32,967 nt of DNA from Flavobacteriales bacterium. GTDB lineage: Bacteria > Bacteroidota > Bacteroidia > Flavobacteriales_D > Sanyastnellaceae. Location of the stretch: the NCBI GenBank assembly GCA_029245065.1, contig JAQWQB010000118.1, positions 1 to 32,967 of the forward strand, read 5' to 3'. The notes under the pieces were generated by a model. That model was not told the origin of the DNA, made no database searches, and worked only from the letters and a program-made list of their open reading frames with translations. Of this stretch, positions 1,748 through 8,396 are shown one piece after another (position 1 is the stretch's first letter; each line of letters opens with the position of its first letter). The position numbers were made by a program, and so were the translations under genes.

Positions 1748-2248
1748 TTAAATGTCGGTGAGTTTGATGGTCTGTTTCACAATGCTGGTGTTGCCACATT
1801 GGTCTTCGGCAGTCCAAATTCGAACTACATTGTCATCGACTCTTTTCTCAGAGAGCGAAACCGAAACCGGTTTACCGCTGTTGTCTGAAGCGGTCACAGC
1901 TGGTGCTTCTGGAAGATTGTCCATTCCAGCGCTCAGCGTAGGAGTCACTTCGTCTAAAACAGGAGGGGTAGAGTCAGTTAATTTAATGTACTGTTCTGCT
2001 GTGGCACTGTTACCGCATTCATCTGTAAAAGTATAGGTGCGAACAAGGTTACCAAGACATCCGCCAGAGAAAATAGCTTCCTTTACGGTAGAAGTCACGA
2101 CCCCGCAATCACTTTGAGCGGTAATTGGAGCTACGGCTTCAACCTGATCAACATCCGCTTCCAACTCAATGGTATAGTTGTCTACAGTAATCTGAGCAGT
2201 CAAACCTGTGGTCATGCCCAACGCAATTATGGCTAGTAGTTGTTTCAT
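1748..2248 (-). CDS. Short secreted HYR-like repeat protein
   Basis: A secreted protein of 166 residues from the preferred ATG at 2248 (alternative in-frame ATGs at 2257 and 2260). The start MKQLLAIIALGMTTGLTAQ is a clean signal peptide. The mature part holds about one and a half HYR-like repeats, an immunoglobulin-fold module common in large Bacteroidota surface proteins. One is the segment ending YTFTDECGNSATAEQ, followed by the linker IKLTDSTPPVL; the second ends WTAEDQCGNTSIVKQ then IKLTDI and the stop. The cysteine-plus-Gly-Asn (CGN) and 'TPPV' marks are typical. HYR modules usually occur in long tandem arrays inside adhesins, so a two-module stand-alone protein is odd. No T9SS C-terminal sorting domain is visible. 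Role unknown; adhesion or surface coating is only a guess. Confidence 0.75.
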   Translation of the reverse strand: MKQLLAIIALGMTTGLTAQITVDNYTIELEADVDQVEAVAPITAQSDCGVVTSTVKEAIFSGGCLGNLVRTYTFTDECGNSATAEQYIKLTDSTPPVLDEVTPTLSAGMDNLPEAPAVTASDNSGKPVSVSLSEKRVDDNVVRIWTAEDQCGNTSIVKQTIKLTDI

Positions 2249-2273
2249 CTTTATCATCATATCAAGTACAACA

Positions 2274-2345: not shown

Positions 2346-4781
2346 CTACCAAAGATCCAACTTGAGCCCAACCCAAAGACTTCGAGGCGCAGCAGGAATT
2401 ATTCCCGGTCCTGGGTAACCCGATGCTCGTCTGGTGAAGTAGGACGAATTCAACACGTTATCGATACCCGCTTGAATAGACCAAGCTTCCCTTCGGTAAC
2501 CAATGTTTACATCATGAATACTGTAGGTCGGAATAGCACCTACCACTGCATTCGGGTCAGCACCGAATGGGGCGTTGGAAGCGTCAGTAAATTGCTCGGT
2601 AATGAGCGTGAATTGGTAACCAAAGCTCCAAGCCTTTACCTTGAACGAAGCCCCTGTCTTGATATTCCACTCTGGGACATATTCTACTGTGTTTCCATCG
2701 ATTGAGGAGTCATCTGACGAAAGGTATTCTGACTGGATGTGCGCAACATTCACAAATGCACGCAATTCATTCTTGGTTTCGCGTTGAAGGGCCGTAAGCA
2801 CATCTATTTCCGAAGTGAATTCAATCCCGGCAGTGTAGGCATTGGCGATGTTTCGACGTACTTGAGCAACTTGGGTACCTAGTGCCGGACTGACTAAAAC
2901 TGATTCTAGGTTGTTGCCGATTTTATCTTCGTATGCCAAGAAAAATAGTGAAGCATCTATAAATAGCCAGTCGGTTAACGTACCCCGATAGCCGAGATCG
3001 GCGGTAAACCCTTGCTCATCGTTGATGTTGGGGTCTACTACTTGGTTCGGATTGATGATGCGAATGTCTGAGAAGTTGATGCCGCGGTAATTGCGCGAGA
3101 AGTTAGCGTACAACTCGCCTTTCCCTTTGAGTCGTTTTGATACACCTAAACCATAGAGTAGGATGTTCCTTGTACGGTTATCAGCTTCGTAATTCACACG
3201 TGGGTAGGATGGAAGTATGTTGCCCGCGCCATCGCGAACAACCTGCGTGTAATTCCCATTCGATGCGGTTGATATATGTTCGAAACGAAAGCCAGGAGTG
3301 ATGGTCCAGTTTCCTTTCACACGAATTATTTGTTCTAAGAAGACGGCTACATTCTCATTATCAAAGTCGTAATCAGACCCGTTAAACGCATCTGACGAGA
3401 TGAATTCGAACGAAGCATCGTCACCATCATTCGCTAGTCCTTGTTGATTGCGGGTGTTACCATCAAAATAGCGCACGCCAAAAACAGATGTAGACAGTTG
3501 TTTGCCCAGTTCCCAACTTCGACGAATTTTTCCTTCCACTCCCCAGTTGTTGAATTCACCTCTGATGAGGTCGCGTTCACCCCCTAGGTCCAATCGCGAT
3601 ATTCGTCCTAATACGCCCAACGCTTCTCTAGAGGCGCTTAGCATGAAAGGGCGAATGAGTACGCGTGTTTTTGAGTTAAGGTCTTGCTCGTAGTTCAACG
3701 CAAGCAGATTCCACTTGACTTTGAACCAGTTTCGGTCGCGGTAAGAAGCGGTAGGGTCTTGTTCAAATTGCGCATCTGTGAGGCCACCAGCTTGTTTGGC
3801 GAGGTAATCGTAATAAGACCACTCAATGTTGATGCTGCCATTTCCGTCGAGCTTTCGACCAACTGAAACGTGAGCGTTATTGGATTTGAAATCGCTGTTC
3901 GGTCTCCAGCCTTCTCCTTGTTTACGCTGGTAATAGGCCATGTATTCCGTTCGGTCGACGGTTCCTCCAATGGCATTGAATGAAGAGAGAATGCCGAATG
4001 AAGCCATGGACTGTTCAGAGATCACACCCAGCTTCTTTTTAGAAGCATCCATCAAGTCGTAATTCAACATGCCGCCAAATTGCGGACCAAATTGAAGACT
4101 GGCTGCTCCTCTGATGAGCTCAATTTTTTGAATGGCTTGAATAGGAGGGGCGTAATAACTTTCTGGATAGCCCAGTGGGTCTGCAGAGATATCGTATCCG
4201 TTTTGACGGGTGTTGAAGTTGGAAGTACGGTTCGGGTTCAAGCCTCTACCGCCAATGTTTAGTTGCAAACCAGCGTCGCTGTTGTCAAAGATGTTCAAAC
4301 CTGAAACATGCGAGAACAGTTGCCTAGCGGTTGCTGTGGCGCCACTAAGTGTAATTTCAGACGGACGAATAATATCTGCCTTCTTTCCGGCGTAAACGGT
4401 GAAGTTGTCTACGCTCACCCCGGGAACACCGGTGAATTGACTCCCTTCGCCATAAATAACAGCTCCTTTGTAGAGCTTGATGTTCATCCCAAACGAAACA
4501 CGTTGATGGATGCGAACGTCAATCACCGTATCAATGGGTTCAAAGCCCACGTAGCTGATCTTCAGTGCTACTTCGTCCTTCTCCACAGGAATTCGAACCT
4601 TTCCGAAATGGTCTGTAACGTGTCCGTCTGTTTGATTCACAAGCACTACAGCCATGGGAAGAGGCTCACTCGTCATCAAGTCGTACACTTCAACAGTCAA
4701 CTCGGTTCTGTCCGTAGCCAAAGCGAGCAGTGGCAATACCGCTAGAATCAATGAAACGCTATGTAGCCAAATTCGCTTCAT
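2346..4781 (-). CDS. FecA-like TonB-dependent outer-membrane receptor
   Basis: An 811-residue outer-membrane receptor for active uptake of a metal chelate or similar ligand, energised by TonB-ExbBD. After a signal peptide (residues 1-22) comes a carboxypeptidase-regulatory-like domain (about 25-105) typical of Bacteroidota receptors. A plug domain follows (about 125-240, with the block LSGATATARQLFSHVSGLNI and later IELIRGAASLQFGPQFGG). The rest is a 22-strand-type beta-barrel ending in an aromatic residue (LWVGLKLDLW). The 'YYAPPIQAIQKIELIRGAASLQFGPQFGG' region resembles Fe(III)-dicitrate receptors. It is last in the DUF4856/imelysin/VKGC-like operon, and its ATG overlaps the upstream stop by 4 nt (ATGA), so translation is probably coupled. 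The neighbours suggest iron or another metal, but the ligand cannot be read from sequence. Confidence 0.92.
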   Translation of the reverse strand: MKRIWLHSVSLILAVLPLLALATDRTELTVEVYDLMTSEPLPMAVVLVNQTDGHVTDHFGKVRIPVEKDEVALKISYVGFEPIDTVIDVRIHQRVSFGMNIKLYKGAVIYGEGSQFTGVPGVSVDNFTVYAGKKADIIRPSEITLSGATATARQLFSHVSGLNIFDNSDAGLQLNIGGRGLNPNRTSNFNTRQNGYDISADPLGYPESYYAPPIQAIQKIELIRGAASLQFGPQFGGMLNYDLMDASKKKLGVISEQSMASFGILSSFNAIGGTVDRTEYMAYYQRKQGEGWRPNSDFKSNNAHVSVGRKLDGNGSINIEWSYYDYLAKQAGGLTDAQFEQDPTASYRDRNWFKVKWNLLALNYEQDLNSKTRVLIRPFMLSASREALGVLGRISRLDLGGERDLIRGEFNNWGVEGKIRRSWELGKQLSTSVFGVRYFDGNTRNQQGLANDGDDASFEFISSDAFNGSDYDFDNENVAVFLEQIIRVKGNWTITPGFRFEHISTASNGNYTQVVRDGAGNILPSYPRVNYEADNRTRNILLYGLGVSKRLKGKGELYANFSRNYRGINFSDIRIINPNQVVDPNINDEQGFTADLGYRGTLTDWLFIDASLFFLAYEDKIGNNLESVLVSPALGTQVAQVRRNIANAYTAGIEFTSEIDVLTALQRETKNELRAFVNVAHIQSEYLSSDDSSIDGNTVEYVPEWNIKTGASFKVKAWSFGYQFTLITEQFTDASNAPFGADPNAVVGAIPTYSIHDVNIGYRREAWSIQAGIDNVLNSSYFTRRASGYPGPGIIPAAPRSLWVGLKLDLW

Positions 4782-6139
4782 TCCTGAACCAACAGATTAT
4801 CTGGTGAGACAAGCCATTCCATTCTGTTTGTAGCGGGTGAAATGGTTGTTAAATCTATGGCTGGATTAACGAAGCGTTGACTTCCTTTTCCGTTGAGCGA
4901 AACGAAACTTTCGGCATAAATTTCAGGGGACTCGATACCAGCTAATTCTGCTTCTGCCTTCAGAAAAGCGGCGTATTGAAGTATCATGTCTGGCTGCGTA
5001 CTCATCTGTATTTCTTGCAGTTGTGTCAAGTGTGCCGAAGGTTCTACCAATTTGCGTTTCCCACTAGAAGGGTCAACCACTGTAAAATGGATGTACCCTG
5101 CTTTTTCCATGAGCATTACTCTCCATGAAAAACGATAGCCCGCTTCGTCCCAGAAAACATTGTCTGACAACCAATGACTTCTTAATGGAAGCATGAGTTG
5201 TACGAAGAAGTGAATGCTCAAGAAGGCCACAAAAGTGCGTGAAACAATGCGCTTAGGTGTCACGGGAATGTCAAGAGCTACTGTTCCATTGTTTCGCTCA
5301 AATCGTTTCCAAAAACGTTCATGTGCTGAAGGAGGGAAGAAGACAAGGGTCAGGCCAATCATGATCCAAGGGAACATGCCAATTTGGAAAAGATACCATG
5401 TCATTACATGGAAAATAACGACGGCTGCGTAAGCCCATTTTCGGGTTCTTGAAGCCATCAAAAAGAAGACAATGGTGAGGTCATAAAAAGCACCCATCCA
5501 GCTGAAAAGGTATGCTGTTTCTTCTAGCCTTAAGAAGCTTCCAATTAGGGGAGCATCTGCGCGAGCAGGGAGCCAAATTTTCATCGGCATAGCGTCCAAA
5601 AGCCAAGCGCTATTTAACTTCGCTACTCCTGCGAAAAGGTACACGAGCGCTAGTTGAATAATGAACATATACACCTGATATGCAGGGATATGTGTTATTT
5701 TGTCTGAAGTTATTAATGAATCAATGCTCAATCGCTTGTTTGCCGAGGTGAAGCACAGCAATAGGGCAATAATGGAAACGAAGTAATAGTGATTTAAGTA
5801 GGGTGCTTTATCAAGCAATTCGACATACGTGAACAGGACAAAAAAGGAAATGCTTGCTATTCGAAAAGCAGCTCCCAAAGCGATGCAAATAGCAGCTAGA
5901 AACAGCAGGAAGAAAACCATGTACATTCCTGCTTCTGGCAACGGCTGAATGAAGTCGAAACCGAACCATGTAAAATGAAATGATGGATCCACGTATAAAT
6001 CGTGAATCCATCCCTTGAACCAAAAACGTGCTATACTGAAAGCCATGAGGCTCCCGAACACTATCCGAAGTGTAACCAACGGAAATATGGAGATTGGTTT
6101 GCTTAACCAACTGACGATATGTTGCAGTTGATTAGTCAC
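4778..6139 (-). CDS. HTTM / vitamin-K-dependent gamma-carboxylase-like membrane protein
   Basis: A 453-residue polytopic inner-membrane protein of the HTTM/VKGC family. The first ~310 residues hold several hydrophobic helices. Signatures I recognise from human GGCX and its bacterial homologues: LDKAPYLNHYY (109-119; Asn116-His117 match GGCX Asn159-His160), FAGVAKLNSAW (169-179; Lys174 matches the catalytic base Lys218), and FH....YLFQIGMFPWIM (243-260). The soluble C-terminal part has the family blocks YRFSWRVML (335-343), TQPDMILQYAAFL (381-393) and FVSLNGK (412-418). VKGC enzymes oxidise reduced vitamin K and carboxylate glutamates; whether this one is catalytic is unknown. Bacteroidota use menaquinone, a possible cosubstrate. 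The start is GTG, overlapping the imelysin stop by 8 nt; no in-frame ATG occurs before the first membrane helix. It overlaps the receptor gene by 4 nt. Confidence 0.88.
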   Translation of the reverse strand: MTNQLQHIVSWLSKPISIFPLVTLRIVFGSLMAFSIARFWFKGWIHDLYVDPSFHFTWFGFDFIQPLPEAGMYMVFFLLFLAAICIALGAAFRIASISFFVLFTYVELLDKAPYLNHYYFVSIIALLLCFTSANKRLSIDSLITSDKITHIPAYQVYMFIIQLALVYLFAGVAKLNSAWLLDAMPMKIWLPARADAPLIGSFLRLEETAYLFSWMGAFYDLTIVFFLMASRTRKWAYAAVVIFHVMTWYLFQIGMFPWIMIGLTLVFFPPSAHERFWKRFERNNGTVALDIPVTPKRIVSRTFVAFLSIHFFVQLMLPLRSHWLSDNVFWDEAGYRFSWRVMLMEKAGYIHFTVVDPSSGKRKLVEPSAHLTQLQEIQMSTQPDMILQYAAFLKAEAELAGIESPEIYAESFVSLNGKGSQRFVNPAIDLTTISPATNRMEWLVSPDNLLVQE

Positions 6140-7220
6140 CGTCGTTGTCTGTGAAGGTAATACTGATGCCTAAAGCACTTGGAAGGTCTACCTTGAGGAG
6201 CACCACAACTTCTTGTAATTCATCGTATGCCTCCTGAACAATTTGAGGATTTACATCGATGGTGTCACTCAGCGGGTCTGGAACTTGTTCAAGAGCAGTT
6301 TGCGCCTCTTGTATGGCAGTTAGAATGGCATCTGACAAATCCATCTGCGAACCGTCATGGTATGCGCCCAGTTCATCCAGCAGTGCTTTTAATCCTCTTC
6401 CTTCAAATCCGTCTATGCTCTTGCGAAGAGAGGTCAGGTGCTGGAGTGCCAATTCAACCGAATAGCCGCCGTGGTAGGCTTCTACTTTGTCTGGCAATGG
6501 AATGTCCAACGTCAATAGCCCTAAAGGAAGAGCTACTTTATCTCTTTTCAGTAACTCGTAATCTTGAACGAAACTATTGATGTATAAGCTCATTCCAGCA
6601 CCAGCGAATGCACCGCCGTTGCTTCTGAATTCTTCAGCATAGTTGCTTTGCCAAGCACTTTCGAGTGCCGTAATGTTCGCAACAAGCTCATTGGAACAAA
6701 CAGAGAGAACGTTCATTCTGGACGCCCCTGTTGTTTCATTGGTGAAGGCCGTCAACAATTCGTCTGCTGTCAAGTTCGCCTCATTCAGCAGCCAATCCAA
6801 TGCTGGCAAACCCTTTTCATCATTCGCCGGATTGACGTATTCTCCGGTTTCTAGGGCGTTCTGCAGAAACATGGCATCAGCAGGGAAGGTATTCAGTTGC
6901 GGGATGATGAACTCCCCTGGCCCAAAACGGAGGAATGAAATCTGTTGGAATGAAATCCAGGCATTTTTGTGGCTTTGTTGAACGTTGGCCAGATTAGAAA
7001 GGGTAGGTGCGATTAGGAAAGATTCTACCGCGTTGTTCAACAGCTCGATGTCTTGAGAAGCCTCGGAAATACCAGGAGCGATAATGTCTTCCTCAAAATA
7101 TCCGAGTTGGGTTCTGTACTGCGTAATTTCTTCTTCTACCAAGATGTCATCACGCCCACAATCGGAGCATGATGACATACCTAGTACACAAAGAATAAAT
7201 GCGAGGTGGGTAAATTTCAT
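6132..7220 (-). CDS. Imelysin-family lipoprotein
   Basis: A 362-residue imelysin (peptidase M75/IrpA-type) protein, predicted to be a lipoprotein: hydrophobic leader with a lipobox-like MSSC and modified Cys18. Family hallmarks are AWISFQQISFLRFGPGE, the LPALDWLLNE block (family 'PxLEYLLF'), and a late YHGGYSVELALQHLTSLRKSIDG helix pair, giving the two-bundle imelysin fold. The GxHxxE motif of the M75/EfeO branch is not present, so this belongs to a divergent branch and is unlikely to be a peptidase. Family members bind or help import iron. A Glu-rich patch (residues 29-44) follows the lipidated Cys. The ATG at 7220 lies 1 nt after the DUF4856 stop; the frame is also open upstream, but a start there would delete the leader logic. 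Position between DUF4856 and the VKGC-like gene supports a metal-uptake role. Confidence 0.88.
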   Translation of the reverse strand: MKFTHLAFILCVLGMSSCSDCGRDDILVEEEITQYRTQLGYFEEDIIAPGISEASQDIELLNNAVESFLIAPTLSNLANVQQSHKNAWISFQQISFLRFGPGEFIIPQLNTFPADAMFLQNALETGEYVNPANDEKGLPALDWLLNEANLTADELLTAFTNETTGASRMNVLSVCSNELVANITALESAWQSNYAEEFRSNGGAFAGAGMSLYINSFVQDYELLKRDKVALPLGLLTLDIPLPDKVEAYHGGYSVELALQHLTSLRKSIDGFEGRGLKALLDELGAYHDGSQMDLSDAILTAIQEAQTALEQVPDPLSDTIDVNPQIVQEAYDELQEVVVLLKVDLPSALGISITFTDNDGD

Positions 7221-7221
7221 A

Positions 7222-8364
7222 TTATATACTTGCGAATTCAACCAGTTCAATCAACGTGTTGTTGATCAAGAATTCAATGGTGGCATCAATGTCTTCTTCT
7301 GTCGTTTCATAGAAGTTGTCACCTAACAGGTCATACGCTTCTTGCACTTGAGCGGGCGTCAATGCTAGGTCAGTTCTGTTGTGAAGCAAGTTGCCGATGA
7401 AAGCGCGTGCTTCGCTTAGTTCATGGCACTTAAGCGCGGCATCGTCTATGTTTTCTTTTGCATCTTTCAGGTAACTCAACGCTGTCCCGACAATGGCACG
7501 GTGCCATTGTGTTCGCAACGCATCTGTGTGTGTGCTTACGTCTTCGTTACCTGTAATAGCGGCTCTTGTTGCAAGAAAGGCATCCATGATCGTGTTAGTA
7601 CCCAGGGCTGCATCTCTGGAGTTGCAGTATTTCCCATGAAAACGCACACCATCTGTATTCGAAGGGAAGTCAGTTGGAATTCCGAAGTACCCAAATGCTT
7701 CGTCAAATTTATGCTCTGCTTCGGTGTAGTACTTTCCTTCAGCAGCATCTGTTATCGTCACGTTATCATAAGAACCCGCTTCCGTTCCGTCGATGTAGGT
7801 AGCCATCGCTTGGTAGTACAACACATCTCCCATCAATCCTTTTTCAATGAGCTGAATGTGTTCCATTCCATTTTCATCAAGCAAGTAGGCTTTGGTATTG
7901 TTGGTGGTACTAGTAACTACACCCGCTGTTCCGTTGGAACCTTCAACTGTGCTCATTGAGGCGGTTTCCAAGGCCGTGAAGTAGTCTAAATAAATATCTA
8001 ATGTTCCAAGAAAACACTTGTTCTGTAGTTGTTTTCCACTCACTGCTGCATCTGCGGTGAAGTGAACCGAACCGTTGCCATCTCCATTAGAAAACATATC
8101 CAACAGTACTGCTGCGTCAACTACCGTATTGGGCGTATTGCCCGTTTTCATGTACGCAGTAAGTTCCTCCAATTGATTCAATCGAGCTGTTTGACCTGAA
8201 TAAGACACCGTACTATTGCCATCTCTAAGAAAGCAGTACGTTCCTGTTTCACATGTTAAACTCTCTGTAGTTGTGGTGTCTTCGCACACTACGGGGTCGT
8301 CTTTCTTACAAGCTGACAGACCTATTACAACGATTCCTATTGCTACCCAGTTTTTCTTCATCAT
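7222..8364 (-). CDS. DUF4856 lipoprotein
   Basis: A 380-residue predicted lipoprotein: MMKKNWVAIGIVVIGLSAC with lipobox LSAC, then a Cys-containing, Thr-rich linker. The body (YSGQTARLNQLEELTAYMKTG and later helical segments, ending YETTEEDIDATIEFLINNTLIELVEF) matches the DUF4856 family as I recall it. DUF4856 proteins are found in Bacteroidota, often next to imelysin genes, and are thought to belong to surface metal-binding or uptake units; no biochemical role is established to my knowledge. It is the first gene of the operon. The start is ATG at 8364 (or the adjacent ATG at 8361); a longer open frame upstream begins before the predicted promoter and would bury the lipoprotein leader. A promoter-like pair (TTG, 20 nt, CATTTTTG) sits 32 nt upstream. 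Confidence 0.85.
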   Translation of the reverse strand: MMKKNWVAIGIVVIGLSACKKDDPVVCEDTTTTESLTCETGTYCFLRDGNSTVSYSGQTARLNQLEELTAYMKTGNTPNTVVDAAVLLDMFSNGDGNGSVHFTADAAVSGKQLQNKCFLGTLDIYLDYFTALETASMSTVEGSNGTAGVVTSTTNNTKAYLLDENGMEHIQLIEKGLMGDVLYYQAMATYIDGTEAGSYDNVTITDAAEGKYYTEAEHKFDEAFGYFGIPTDFPSNTDGVRFHGKYCNSRDAALGTNTIMDAFLATRAAITGNEDVSTHTDALRTQWHRAIVGTALSYLKDAKENIDDAALKCHELSEARAFIGNLLHNRTDLALTPAQVQEAYDLLGDNFYETTEEDIDATIEFLINNTLIELVEFASI

Positions 8365-8396
8365 TCCCTTACTTAGATTCGTTTTAAATAACACTG

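What the first reader, a model, noticed from the sequence alone, without database searches (positions are those of the whole stretch)
4778..8364. VKGC-like carboxylase homologue embedded in an imelysin/TonB metal-uptake operon
The membrane protein keeps residues that align, by my own memory-based reading, with human GGCX: Asn116-His117 (GGCX 159-160) and Lys174 (GGCX 218), plus the FH....LF.IGMF block. It is translationally coupled on both sides (GTG with 8-nt overlap; ATGA) to imelysin and a FecA-like receptor, and DUF4856 is 1 nt upstream of imelysin. Hypothesis: a menaquinol-dependent carboxylation, or a related modification, of a surface lipoprotein helps bind metal. Known HTTM proteins in bacteria have few assigned roles.
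Basis: partly seen in the sequence, partly recalled or inferred. Interest (0 to 1): 0.7.

Follow-up and report, generated by a model that had tools for sequence, protein, structure and literature searches.

The report
Bacterial vitamin-K carboxylase relative in iron operon
A bacterial relative of the human blood-clotting enzyme vitamin K-dependent carboxylase sits in an iron-starvation gene set, partnered with one kind of imelysin protein that ends in Asp-x-Asp, and in some bacteria an unrelated hydroxylase takes its place, which suggests that both enzymes modify this partner to help capture iron.

Summary
Window 4778-6139(-) encodes an HTTM + VKGC-lumenal protein matching human GGCX by sequence (E 4e-36) and predicted fold (Z 31.9, 437 residues). 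N116-H117 and K174 align with GGCX N159-H160 and K218; the naphthoquinone pocket is kept. It lies in a tightly packed DUF4856-imelysin-VKGC-FecA-like operon behind a Fur-box-like site; a like gene set is iron-responsive in Riemerella.

The partner is one imelysin sub-family ending D-x-D-COOH (172 of 179 ORFs; 0 of 42 canonical). In 198 Bacteroidota genomes the linked VKGC type and this imelysin occur in the same 41. Linked VKGCs form one clade with shared pocket changes. Of 25 Myxococcota tailed-imelysin loci without adjacent VKGC, 20 carry an FA_hydroxylase, 17 directly after the imelysin as VKGC is; 0 of 30 VKGC-linked loci do.

I infer a menaquinol/O2-dependent enzyme modifying the imelysin, probably by carboxylation. 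The D-x-D tail is the best candidate site but unproven: it persists where neither enzyme is adjacent. Carboxylation was not testable, and part of the GGCX propeptide-binding region is missing.

The parts
8371..8389 (-). Fur-box-like 19-mer ATTTAAAACGAATCTAAGT just upstream of the DUF4856 start
   Evidence: 14 of 19 to the Riemerella consensus; 58 of 64 DUF4856 upstream regions reach >=14 against 5% of base shuffles
7222..8364 (-). DUF4856 lipoprotein, 380 aa, first gene of the operon
   Evidence: PF16148 112 bits; confident model without a clear known fold
6132..7220 (-). Imelysin-family lipoprotein of the D-x-D-tail (IPPA-like) kind; ORF is listed from 7250, likely start ATG at 7220
   Evidence: PF09375 80 bits; best PDB relative 3pf0 IPPA, E 5.9e-10; groups with VKGC-linked imelysins
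6135..6170 (-). C-terminal tail GISITFTDNDGD of the imelysin; D-x-D-COOH is its last three codons (6135-6143)
   Evidence: D-x-D-COOH in 172 of 179 tail-type and 0 of 42 canonical imelysin ORFs
4778..6139 (-). GGCX/VKGC homologue, HTTM + VKGC lumenal domain, 453 aa, GTG start
5789..5794 (-). Codons of Asn116-His117 (GGCX N159-H160)
5618..5620 (-). Codon of Lys174 (GGCX K218, the catalytic base)
   Evidence: role of K218 from PMC12589487
2346..4781 (-). FecA-like TonB-dependent receptor, 811 aa, ATGA-coupled to the VKGC gene
   Evidence: PF00593, PF07715; PDB FecA E 3.4e-28

Best explanation
The 453-aa protein is a membrane enzyme of the GGCX family. It most likely uses menaquinol and O2 to generate a strong base facing the periplasm and modifies its operon partner, a D-x-D-tailed imelysin lipoprotein, probably by adding CO2 to an acidic side chain so as to make a hard iron ligand. 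The tail (DNDGD-COOH) is the best single candidate site. The operon is switched on by iron starvation and works with a FecA-like receptor. Shown here: homology, conserved catalytic Lys/His/quinone pocket, gene order, near-perfect co-occurrence with the tailed imelysin, conserved Fur-box-like sites, and replacement in many Myxococcota operons by another oxygenase-family membrane protein. Inferred: Fur control in this organism, menaquinol use, carboxylation, imelysin as substrate, tail as site, iron binding.
For: Catalytic and quinone-pocket residues conserved; fold Z 31.9 over 437 residues. Imelysin adjacent in 79 of 80 GTDB loci, 75 on the same strand, the exception cut by its contig start. 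In 198 Bacteroidota genomes 39 of 52 VKGC genes lie beside an imelysin; tailed imelysins and VKGCs with the linked-clade residue signature fall in the same 41 genomes. Myxococcota: 30 of 48 VKGC genes beside an imelysin. Linked VKGCs fall in one clade, support 0.87, with V341 in 30 of 30 linked Myxococcota genes against M/T/S/K in 12 of 14 readable non-linked ones. Of 25 tailed-imelysin loci without adjacent VKGC, 20 have an FA_hydroxylase in the operon (20 of 22 not cut short), 17 directly after the imelysin; 0 of 30 VKGC-linked loci have one in the stretch read. Fur-box-like sites; Riemerella iron data, PMC5609570. The last residues of the IPPA crystal construct, 384-389, are disordered, PMC3143127. 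menA present in the genome.
Against: The tail is also present where the next gene is DUF1513 (Pseudomonadota) or where neither enzyme is adjacent (Sinorhizobium L129, Myxococcota L195 and L201), so it has a role without VKGC. Glu-pocket residues N158, R436 and M401 are changed and about 250 C-terminal GGCX residues are absent. No VKOR hit in this genome. The Riemerella paper's Fur-box table does not list this operon, and its rise in the fur deletion with iron is only 1.36- to 1.93-fold. A 2005 paper on the Leptospira homologue is titled, as I recall, as showing activity that suggests a role other than protein carboxylation; it is not held. VKGCs outside the linked clade occur without imelysin, and L187 has the linked-type residues without an imelysin in the 1.5 kb upstream.
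Confidence: 0.42

Rival explanations
1. The enzyme does menaquinol epoxidation or another quinone/O2 reaction without protein carboxylation, for example to serve iron redox or oxygen chemistry beside the imelysin.
For: Quinone pocket more strictly kept than the Glu pocket; sister operons carry a di-haem oxidoreductase; no VKOR in the genome; recalled title of the Leptospira study.
Against: N159 and H160, which hold the substrate Glu in GGCX, are kept in 111 of 112 rows; linked VKGCs share pocket changes that track the imelysin partner, though within one clade.
Confidence: 0.2
2. It modifies a small iron ligand or a lipid handled by the imelysin rather than the protein itself.
For: The replacing protein is of the fatty-acid hydroxylase family, whose nearest (far sub-threshold) NCBIfam model is an ornithine-lipid hydroxylase in the two scanned; the receptor is FecA-like.
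Against: GGCX residues that hold a peptide Glu are conserved in part; operons of the DHOR kind keep VKGC without an adjacent receptor.
Confidence: 0.15
3. It modifies DUF4856 or the TonB receptor.
For: 31 of 33 DUF4856 genes lie beside a VKGC in 198 Bacteroidota genomes.
Against: Operons with DHOR and two imelysins keep VKGC and the tailed imelysin but not DUF4856.
Confidence: 0.1
4. A co-regulated passenger: the enzyme acts on an unrelated target and is merely placed in an iron regulon.
For: VKGCs outside the linked clade stand beside ribF or alone.
Against: Same 41 genomes of 198; gene order kept across phyla; FA_hydroxylase in the same slot elsewhere.
Confidence: 0.05

Closest known systems
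Human GGCX (vitamin K-dependent gamma-glutamyl carboxylase)
   Same: HTTM fold and first lumenal part, K218, N159, H160, W223, F286, F294, F299; 26% identity over 437 residues
   Different: Covers about GGCX 43-509 only; no C99-C450 disulfide pair, K217 is Ala, N158 is Leu, R436 is Gln, M401 is Val; the partner has no Gla-type propeptide that I know of
Leptospira VKGC homologue (recalled, 2005 study, not read)
   Same: Bacterial GGCX homologue (mentioned in PMC4555120, passage); Leptospira also has an iron-induced imelysin-DHOR-imelysin operon with LruB (PMC7567364, PMC13066512, passages)
   Different: Its sequence and gene neighbourhood could not be reached here, so membership in the linked clade is unknown
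Imelysin operons of Pseudomonas (PA4370-PA4373) and IPPA 3pf0
   Same: Canonical imelysin, DHOR, second imelysin; iron/Fur regulated (PMC3143127 passages); D-x-D tail in 3pf0
   Different: The gene after the tailed imelysin is DUF1513 in four of the five annotated plasmid relatives seen, not VKGC
Riemerella RAYM_09779-09794
   Same: TonB receptor, gamma-carboxylase, imelysin and hypothetical protein listed together as raised without iron (PMC5609570 Table 4)
   Different: Only listed there; no function proposed in the passages read

Membership tests
HTTM/VKGC (GGCX) protein family | HTTM domain and VKGC lumenal domain above curated cut-offs | tested here: met
   249 and 161.7 bits, cut-offs 27.7
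HTTM/VKGC (GGCX) protein family | GGCX fold | tested here: met
   Foldseek E 4.5e-22; VIA Z 31.9, rmsd 3.4, 437 aligned
HTTM/VKGC (GGCX) protein family | Catalytic Lys218, His160, Asn159 | tested here: met
   K174, H117, N116 by sequence alignment
HTTM/VKGC (GGCX) protein family | Naphthoquinone pocket F286, F294, F299, W223, V210 | tested here: met
   F243, F251, F256, W179, V166
Animal-type propeptide-dependent protein carboxylase | Complete propeptide-binding region, C99-C450 pair | tested here: not met
   Model aligns to about GGCX 43-509; C99 is F56, C450 is F392
Animal-type propeptide-dependent protein carboxylase | Substrate-side residues N158, Y395, R436, M401 | tested here: not met
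   L115, Y335, Q378, V341: only Y395 kept
Animal-type propeptide-dependent protein carboxylase | Gamma-carboxylation coupled to vitamin K epoxidation | not testable with these tools
   needs an assay
IPPA-like imelysin family | Imelysin domain without the His of GxHxxE | tested here: met
   PF09375 80 bits; residues 147-152 read GLPALD, where I place the motif by eye; best PDB hit 3pf0
FecA ferric dicitrate receptor (equivalog) | NCBIfam FecA model cut-off | tested here: not met
   124 bits against 1100; relative of FecA, not the equivalog
Fur regulon | Fur box at the promoter | tested here: inconclusive
   14 of 19 match, conserved in relatives; no binding test

The most novel reading that the evidence does not exclude
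Bacteria across phyla build non-standard acidic residues into the C-terminal Asp-x-Asp tail of an iron-starvation imelysin lipoprotein, using either a GGCX-type menaquinol-dependent carboxylase (beta-carboxy-Asp or Gla) or, in an interchangeable gene slot, a membrane fatty-acid-hydroxylase-family enzyme (beta-hydroxy-Asp). Iron chelation would then be a bacterial, perhaps ancestral, role of vitamin K-dependent carboxylation.
Probability: 0.22. Interest if true: 0.95.

Novelty: new variant of a known kind. Interest (0 to 1): 0.74.

Why it matters
What bacterial relatives of the vitamin K-dependent carboxylase do has been an open question (my knowledge). This gives one named partner protein, one candidate site at its very C-terminus, a growth condition (iron starvation) and a natural control (operons in which an unrelated oxygenase-family protein stands in), so the question becomes a direct mass-spectrometry experiment. 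It could also bear on how animal blood-clotting chemistry arose. In the held library only the Riemerella Fur paper contains both 'gamma-carboxylase' and 'imelysin'; 'imelysin' with 'HTTM', and 'DUF4856', gave no paper.

Tried and rejected
Tail as a VKGC-specific signature: it first looked exclusive to VKGC-linked imelysins, but 3pf0 and six Pseudomonadota imelysins on plasmids have it, with no VKGC annotated next to the five in annotated records, so it marks the imelysin sub-family. The Asp at tail position 368 is D in 80 of 90 linked rows (the window counted twice) and in 0 of 7 Pseudomonadota rows, but the seven are few and all one phylum; linked Myxococcota tails of the GDND kind differ again.

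Glu enrichment of linked imelysins: not seen, 5.4% against 6.8% in canonical ones.

Other proteins with the same tail: the pattern [FY]xDxDGD followed by TRR in 198 genomes gave 48 matches in 43 genomes. Read by eye, 13 end in TGG (no stop), one has a stop inside, 31 coincide with imelysins, and three others with a true stop (G190:C34, G024, G039) were not followed up; the reversed control pattern also gave a few matches.

DUF1513 as a Bacteroidota partner: 0 of 198 genomes over the cut-off, four weak matches below it. VKOR in this genome: none. DUF4856 fold: no Foldseek match below 0.001, best VIA Z 8.8 over 96 residues, not informative for a helical protein. DUF4856 profile against PDB sequences: nothing convincing. 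FA_hydroxylase (L208) against PDB sequences: none. Surface-export lipoprotein signals: few fit (10 of 68 DUF4856, 6 of 122 imelysins by a crude pattern), no conclusion. Residues beside the active site as proof of co-evolution: the pattern follows one clade, so it is not independent evidence. Leptospira: no route to its genome found; 'Leptospira' with 'gamma-carboxylase' gave no paper.

Limits of counts: loci from genome contigs and from the genome search overlap in part (for example the contigs of L067 and L154 have the same length), so locus counts are not independent. The 30 linked Myxococcota loci were fetched with about 1.5 kb beyond the VKGC/imelysin matches (less at contig ends), so an FA_hydroxylase further away would be missed. 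In Myxococcota I fetched all 30 linked VKGC loci and all 18 non-linked ones. Four of the 18 are fragments left out of the residue count: L192 (not read), L238 and L242 (both read Val at 341), L241 (Gln). Of the two readable non-linked ones with V341, L185 is cut 0.3 kb upstream by its contig end and L187 is a true exception. Among 25 tailed imelysins without adjacent VKGC the five without FA_hydroxylase are L195, L201 and the contig-cut L199, L221, L223. Of the 57 imelysins without VKGC the others fetched are canonical by profile, or gave a weak or no profile match and were left out (L218, L220, L222, L224); those not fetched on their own are the partners inside linked loci and one fragment.
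Full report
What is there. The window carries four tightly packed genes on the - strand: DUF4856 (7222-8364), imelysin (6132-7220), a 453-aa HTTM/VKGC protein (4778-6139) and a FecA-like TonB receptor (2346-4781). The VKGC protein matches human GGCX in the PDB at E 3.8e-36.

Active site. Aligned with 113 bacterial rows (one of them the window's own locus) and the human stretches, N116, H117 and K174 stand at GGCX N159, H160 and K218 (111 of 112, 111 of 112 and 113 of 113), and the naphthoquinone pocket F286/F294/F299/W223/V210 is kept. The roles of these residues are from the 2025 GGCX structure paper PMC12589487, parts 1 and 2 of 3 read. K217 (Ala here) is reported there as not needed for catalysis. 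N158, R436 and M401 are Leu, Gln and Val, and C99/C450 are lost. The AlphaFold model (mean pLDDT 93.4) aligns with GGCX structures at Z up to 31.9, 437 residues, GGCX 43-506 in that row; Foldseek's 16 matches below 0.001 are all GGCX. The rest of GGCX, including part of the propeptide-binding region, is absent.

Neighbourhood. A scan of GTDB contigs gave 121 relatives, of which the best 80 were kept. 79 of 80 have an imelysin next to the VKGC, 75 on the same strand; in L043 the contig begins at the VKGC. Two main orders occur: DUF4856-imelysin-VKGC-receptor, mostly in Bacteroidota, and imelysin-DHOR-imelysin-VKGC in records labelled Chloroflexota or its classes, Nannocystis, Verrucomicrobia, Trueperaceae and some flavobacteria (DHOR confirmed as PF06537 in L034).

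Independent sample, Bacteroidota. In 198 genomes: 52 VKGC genes in 46 genomes, 56 imelysins over the cut-off in 47, DUF4856 in 33. 39 of 52 VKGC genes have an imelysin within 4 kb on the same strand; 41 of 46 VKGC genomes have an imelysin (Fisher p 2.4e-30, relatedness ignored). Of the 13 others, one is split between contigs (G136), one (G108) has its imelysins elsewhere in the genome, and 11 differ in residues. Seven of these 11 have a 308-315-aa gene directly upstream, which is ribF in the two scanned.

The partner. Imelysins beside VKGC group apart from the canonical, DHOR-adjacent ones, except that seven linked tips (Chloroflexota and others) branch near the base of the canonical side. With profiles built without the last 14 residues, tail-type imelysins end D-x-D-COOH in 172 of 179 ORFs and canonical ones in 0 of 42 (all loci then held except L001). 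The seven exceptions are one contig-cut gene and six ORFs from five Chloroflexota-labelled loci; five of the six end DGDSxR and one is the other piece of the two-frame gene in L066. In the Bacteroidota sample 43 imelysins are tail-type and 13 canonical (L153 is cut by its contig). Combining, tailed imelysins lie in 41 genomes, and these are the same 41 that hold VKGCs with the linked residue signature (40 of the 51 fetched genes, plus the window). The tail is older than, or independent of, VKGC: the crystal-structure relative 3pf0 and six Pseudomonadota plasmid imelysins have it, with DUF1513 next in four (PF07433 confirmed in L126), neither in Sinorhizobium, and one record unannotated. The 3pf0 paper reports residues 384-389 as disordered (PMC3143127, passages).

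Second phylum. In 140 genomes around Nannocystis (G199), 48 VKGC genes over the cut-off lie in 33 genomes and 30 of 48 have an imelysin within 2.5 kb. All 30 linked ones have Val at 341 and Thr, Val or Ile at 247, and all 30 imelysins end D-x-D; of 14 readable non-linked VKGCs 12 do not have Val341. A tree puts the linked genes of all sources in one clade (129 tips, support 0.87, including non-adjacent L085, L185 and L187) and 19 non-linked ones outside.

Replacement. 25 Myxococcota loci have a tailed imelysin but no VKGC beside it. 20 of them carry an FA_hydroxylase-family gene in the operon: 17, three more. Pfam confirmed 14 of the 17; L196, L198 and L207, and the three, rest on my own profile. 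In 17 of the 20 it directly follows the imelysin, as VKGC does; in L196 it follows the receptor and in L197 and L198 it precedes the imelysin. The five loci without it are L195, L201 and three cut by contig ends. None of the 30 VKGC-linked loci has one within the stretch read, and none of the other loci among L001-L214 gave a match. Some genomes hold both kinds of operon (for example G311 and G321).

Iron. A Fur-box-like 19-mer lies at 8371-8389(-), and 58 of 64 DUF4856 upstream regions have a match of at least 14 of 19 against 5% of shuffled ones (single-base shuffles). The consensus and the expression table are from PMC5609570 (passages and one section): RAYM_09779, 09784 (gamma-carboxylase), 09789 (imelysin) and 09794 have wild-type ratios without/with iron of 2.11, 2.64, 3.07 and 2.41; the fur-deletion ratios with iron are 1.90, 1.39, 1.93 and 1.36, and the paper's Fur-box table does not list these genes. 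The genome has menA, so menaquinone is likely made; no VKOR was found.

Reading. Strict pairing with one imelysin sub-family, likely joint iron control, a conserved catalytic core, and replacement by another membrane protein of an O2-dependent enzyme family point to an oxygen-dependent modification of the imelysin. Carboxylation is the default for a GGCX homologue, and hydroxylation would be the analogous change by the FA_hydroxylase; both would add oxygen ligands. These last steps are inference; that PF04116 proteins are membrane di-iron oxygenases is family knowledge, not tested here. The tail is attractive (flexible, acidic, C-terminal, nearly invariant) but is also kept where no modifying enzyme is adjacent. 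The changed Glu pocket is compatible with a different substrate residue, such as Asp; that GGCX can act on Asp in peptides is recalled, not read.

Noticed in passing
L083, L084, L086-L090: A second VKGC clade in Bacteroidota genomes stands beside ribF (Pfam in two of seven) without imelysin and keeps human-like Asn158, Asn290 and Met401 positions; its target is unknown.
   Followed up: partly
G000:C139:62033-62605 (L002): The window's genome has a second, weak HTTM gene (305 aa); the VKGC lumenal profile found no second match in this genome.
   Followed up: no
L186, L188, L193 (genome G199): The Nannocystis genome has four VKGC genes, three of them without imelysin within 2.5 kb and in long ORFs (504-617 aa).
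   Followed up: no
L236, L239, L240: Myxococcota VKGC relatives that keep the Lys but replace the catalytic His by Leu or Phe.
   Followed up: no
L052, L055, L064, L066, L076: Chloroflexota-labelled tailed imelysins end DTDGD-SxR, a three-residue extension of the tail; in four of the five the imelysin is on the opposite strand, convergent with the VKGC.
   Followed up: partly
L126-L128, L130: In Pseudomonadota plasmids DUF1513 takes the place after the tailed imelysin where VKGC stands elsewhere; no function known to me.
   Followed up: partly
window 1748-2260 (-): A small HYR_4C-domain protein follows the TonB receptor; whether it belongs to the operon was not tested.
   Followed up: no
window 7222-8364 (-): DUF4856 gives a confident helical model (pLDDT 91.6) with no clear match in the PDB; K175, Y246 and E318 are invariant in an alignment of 49 sequences.
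   Followed up: partly
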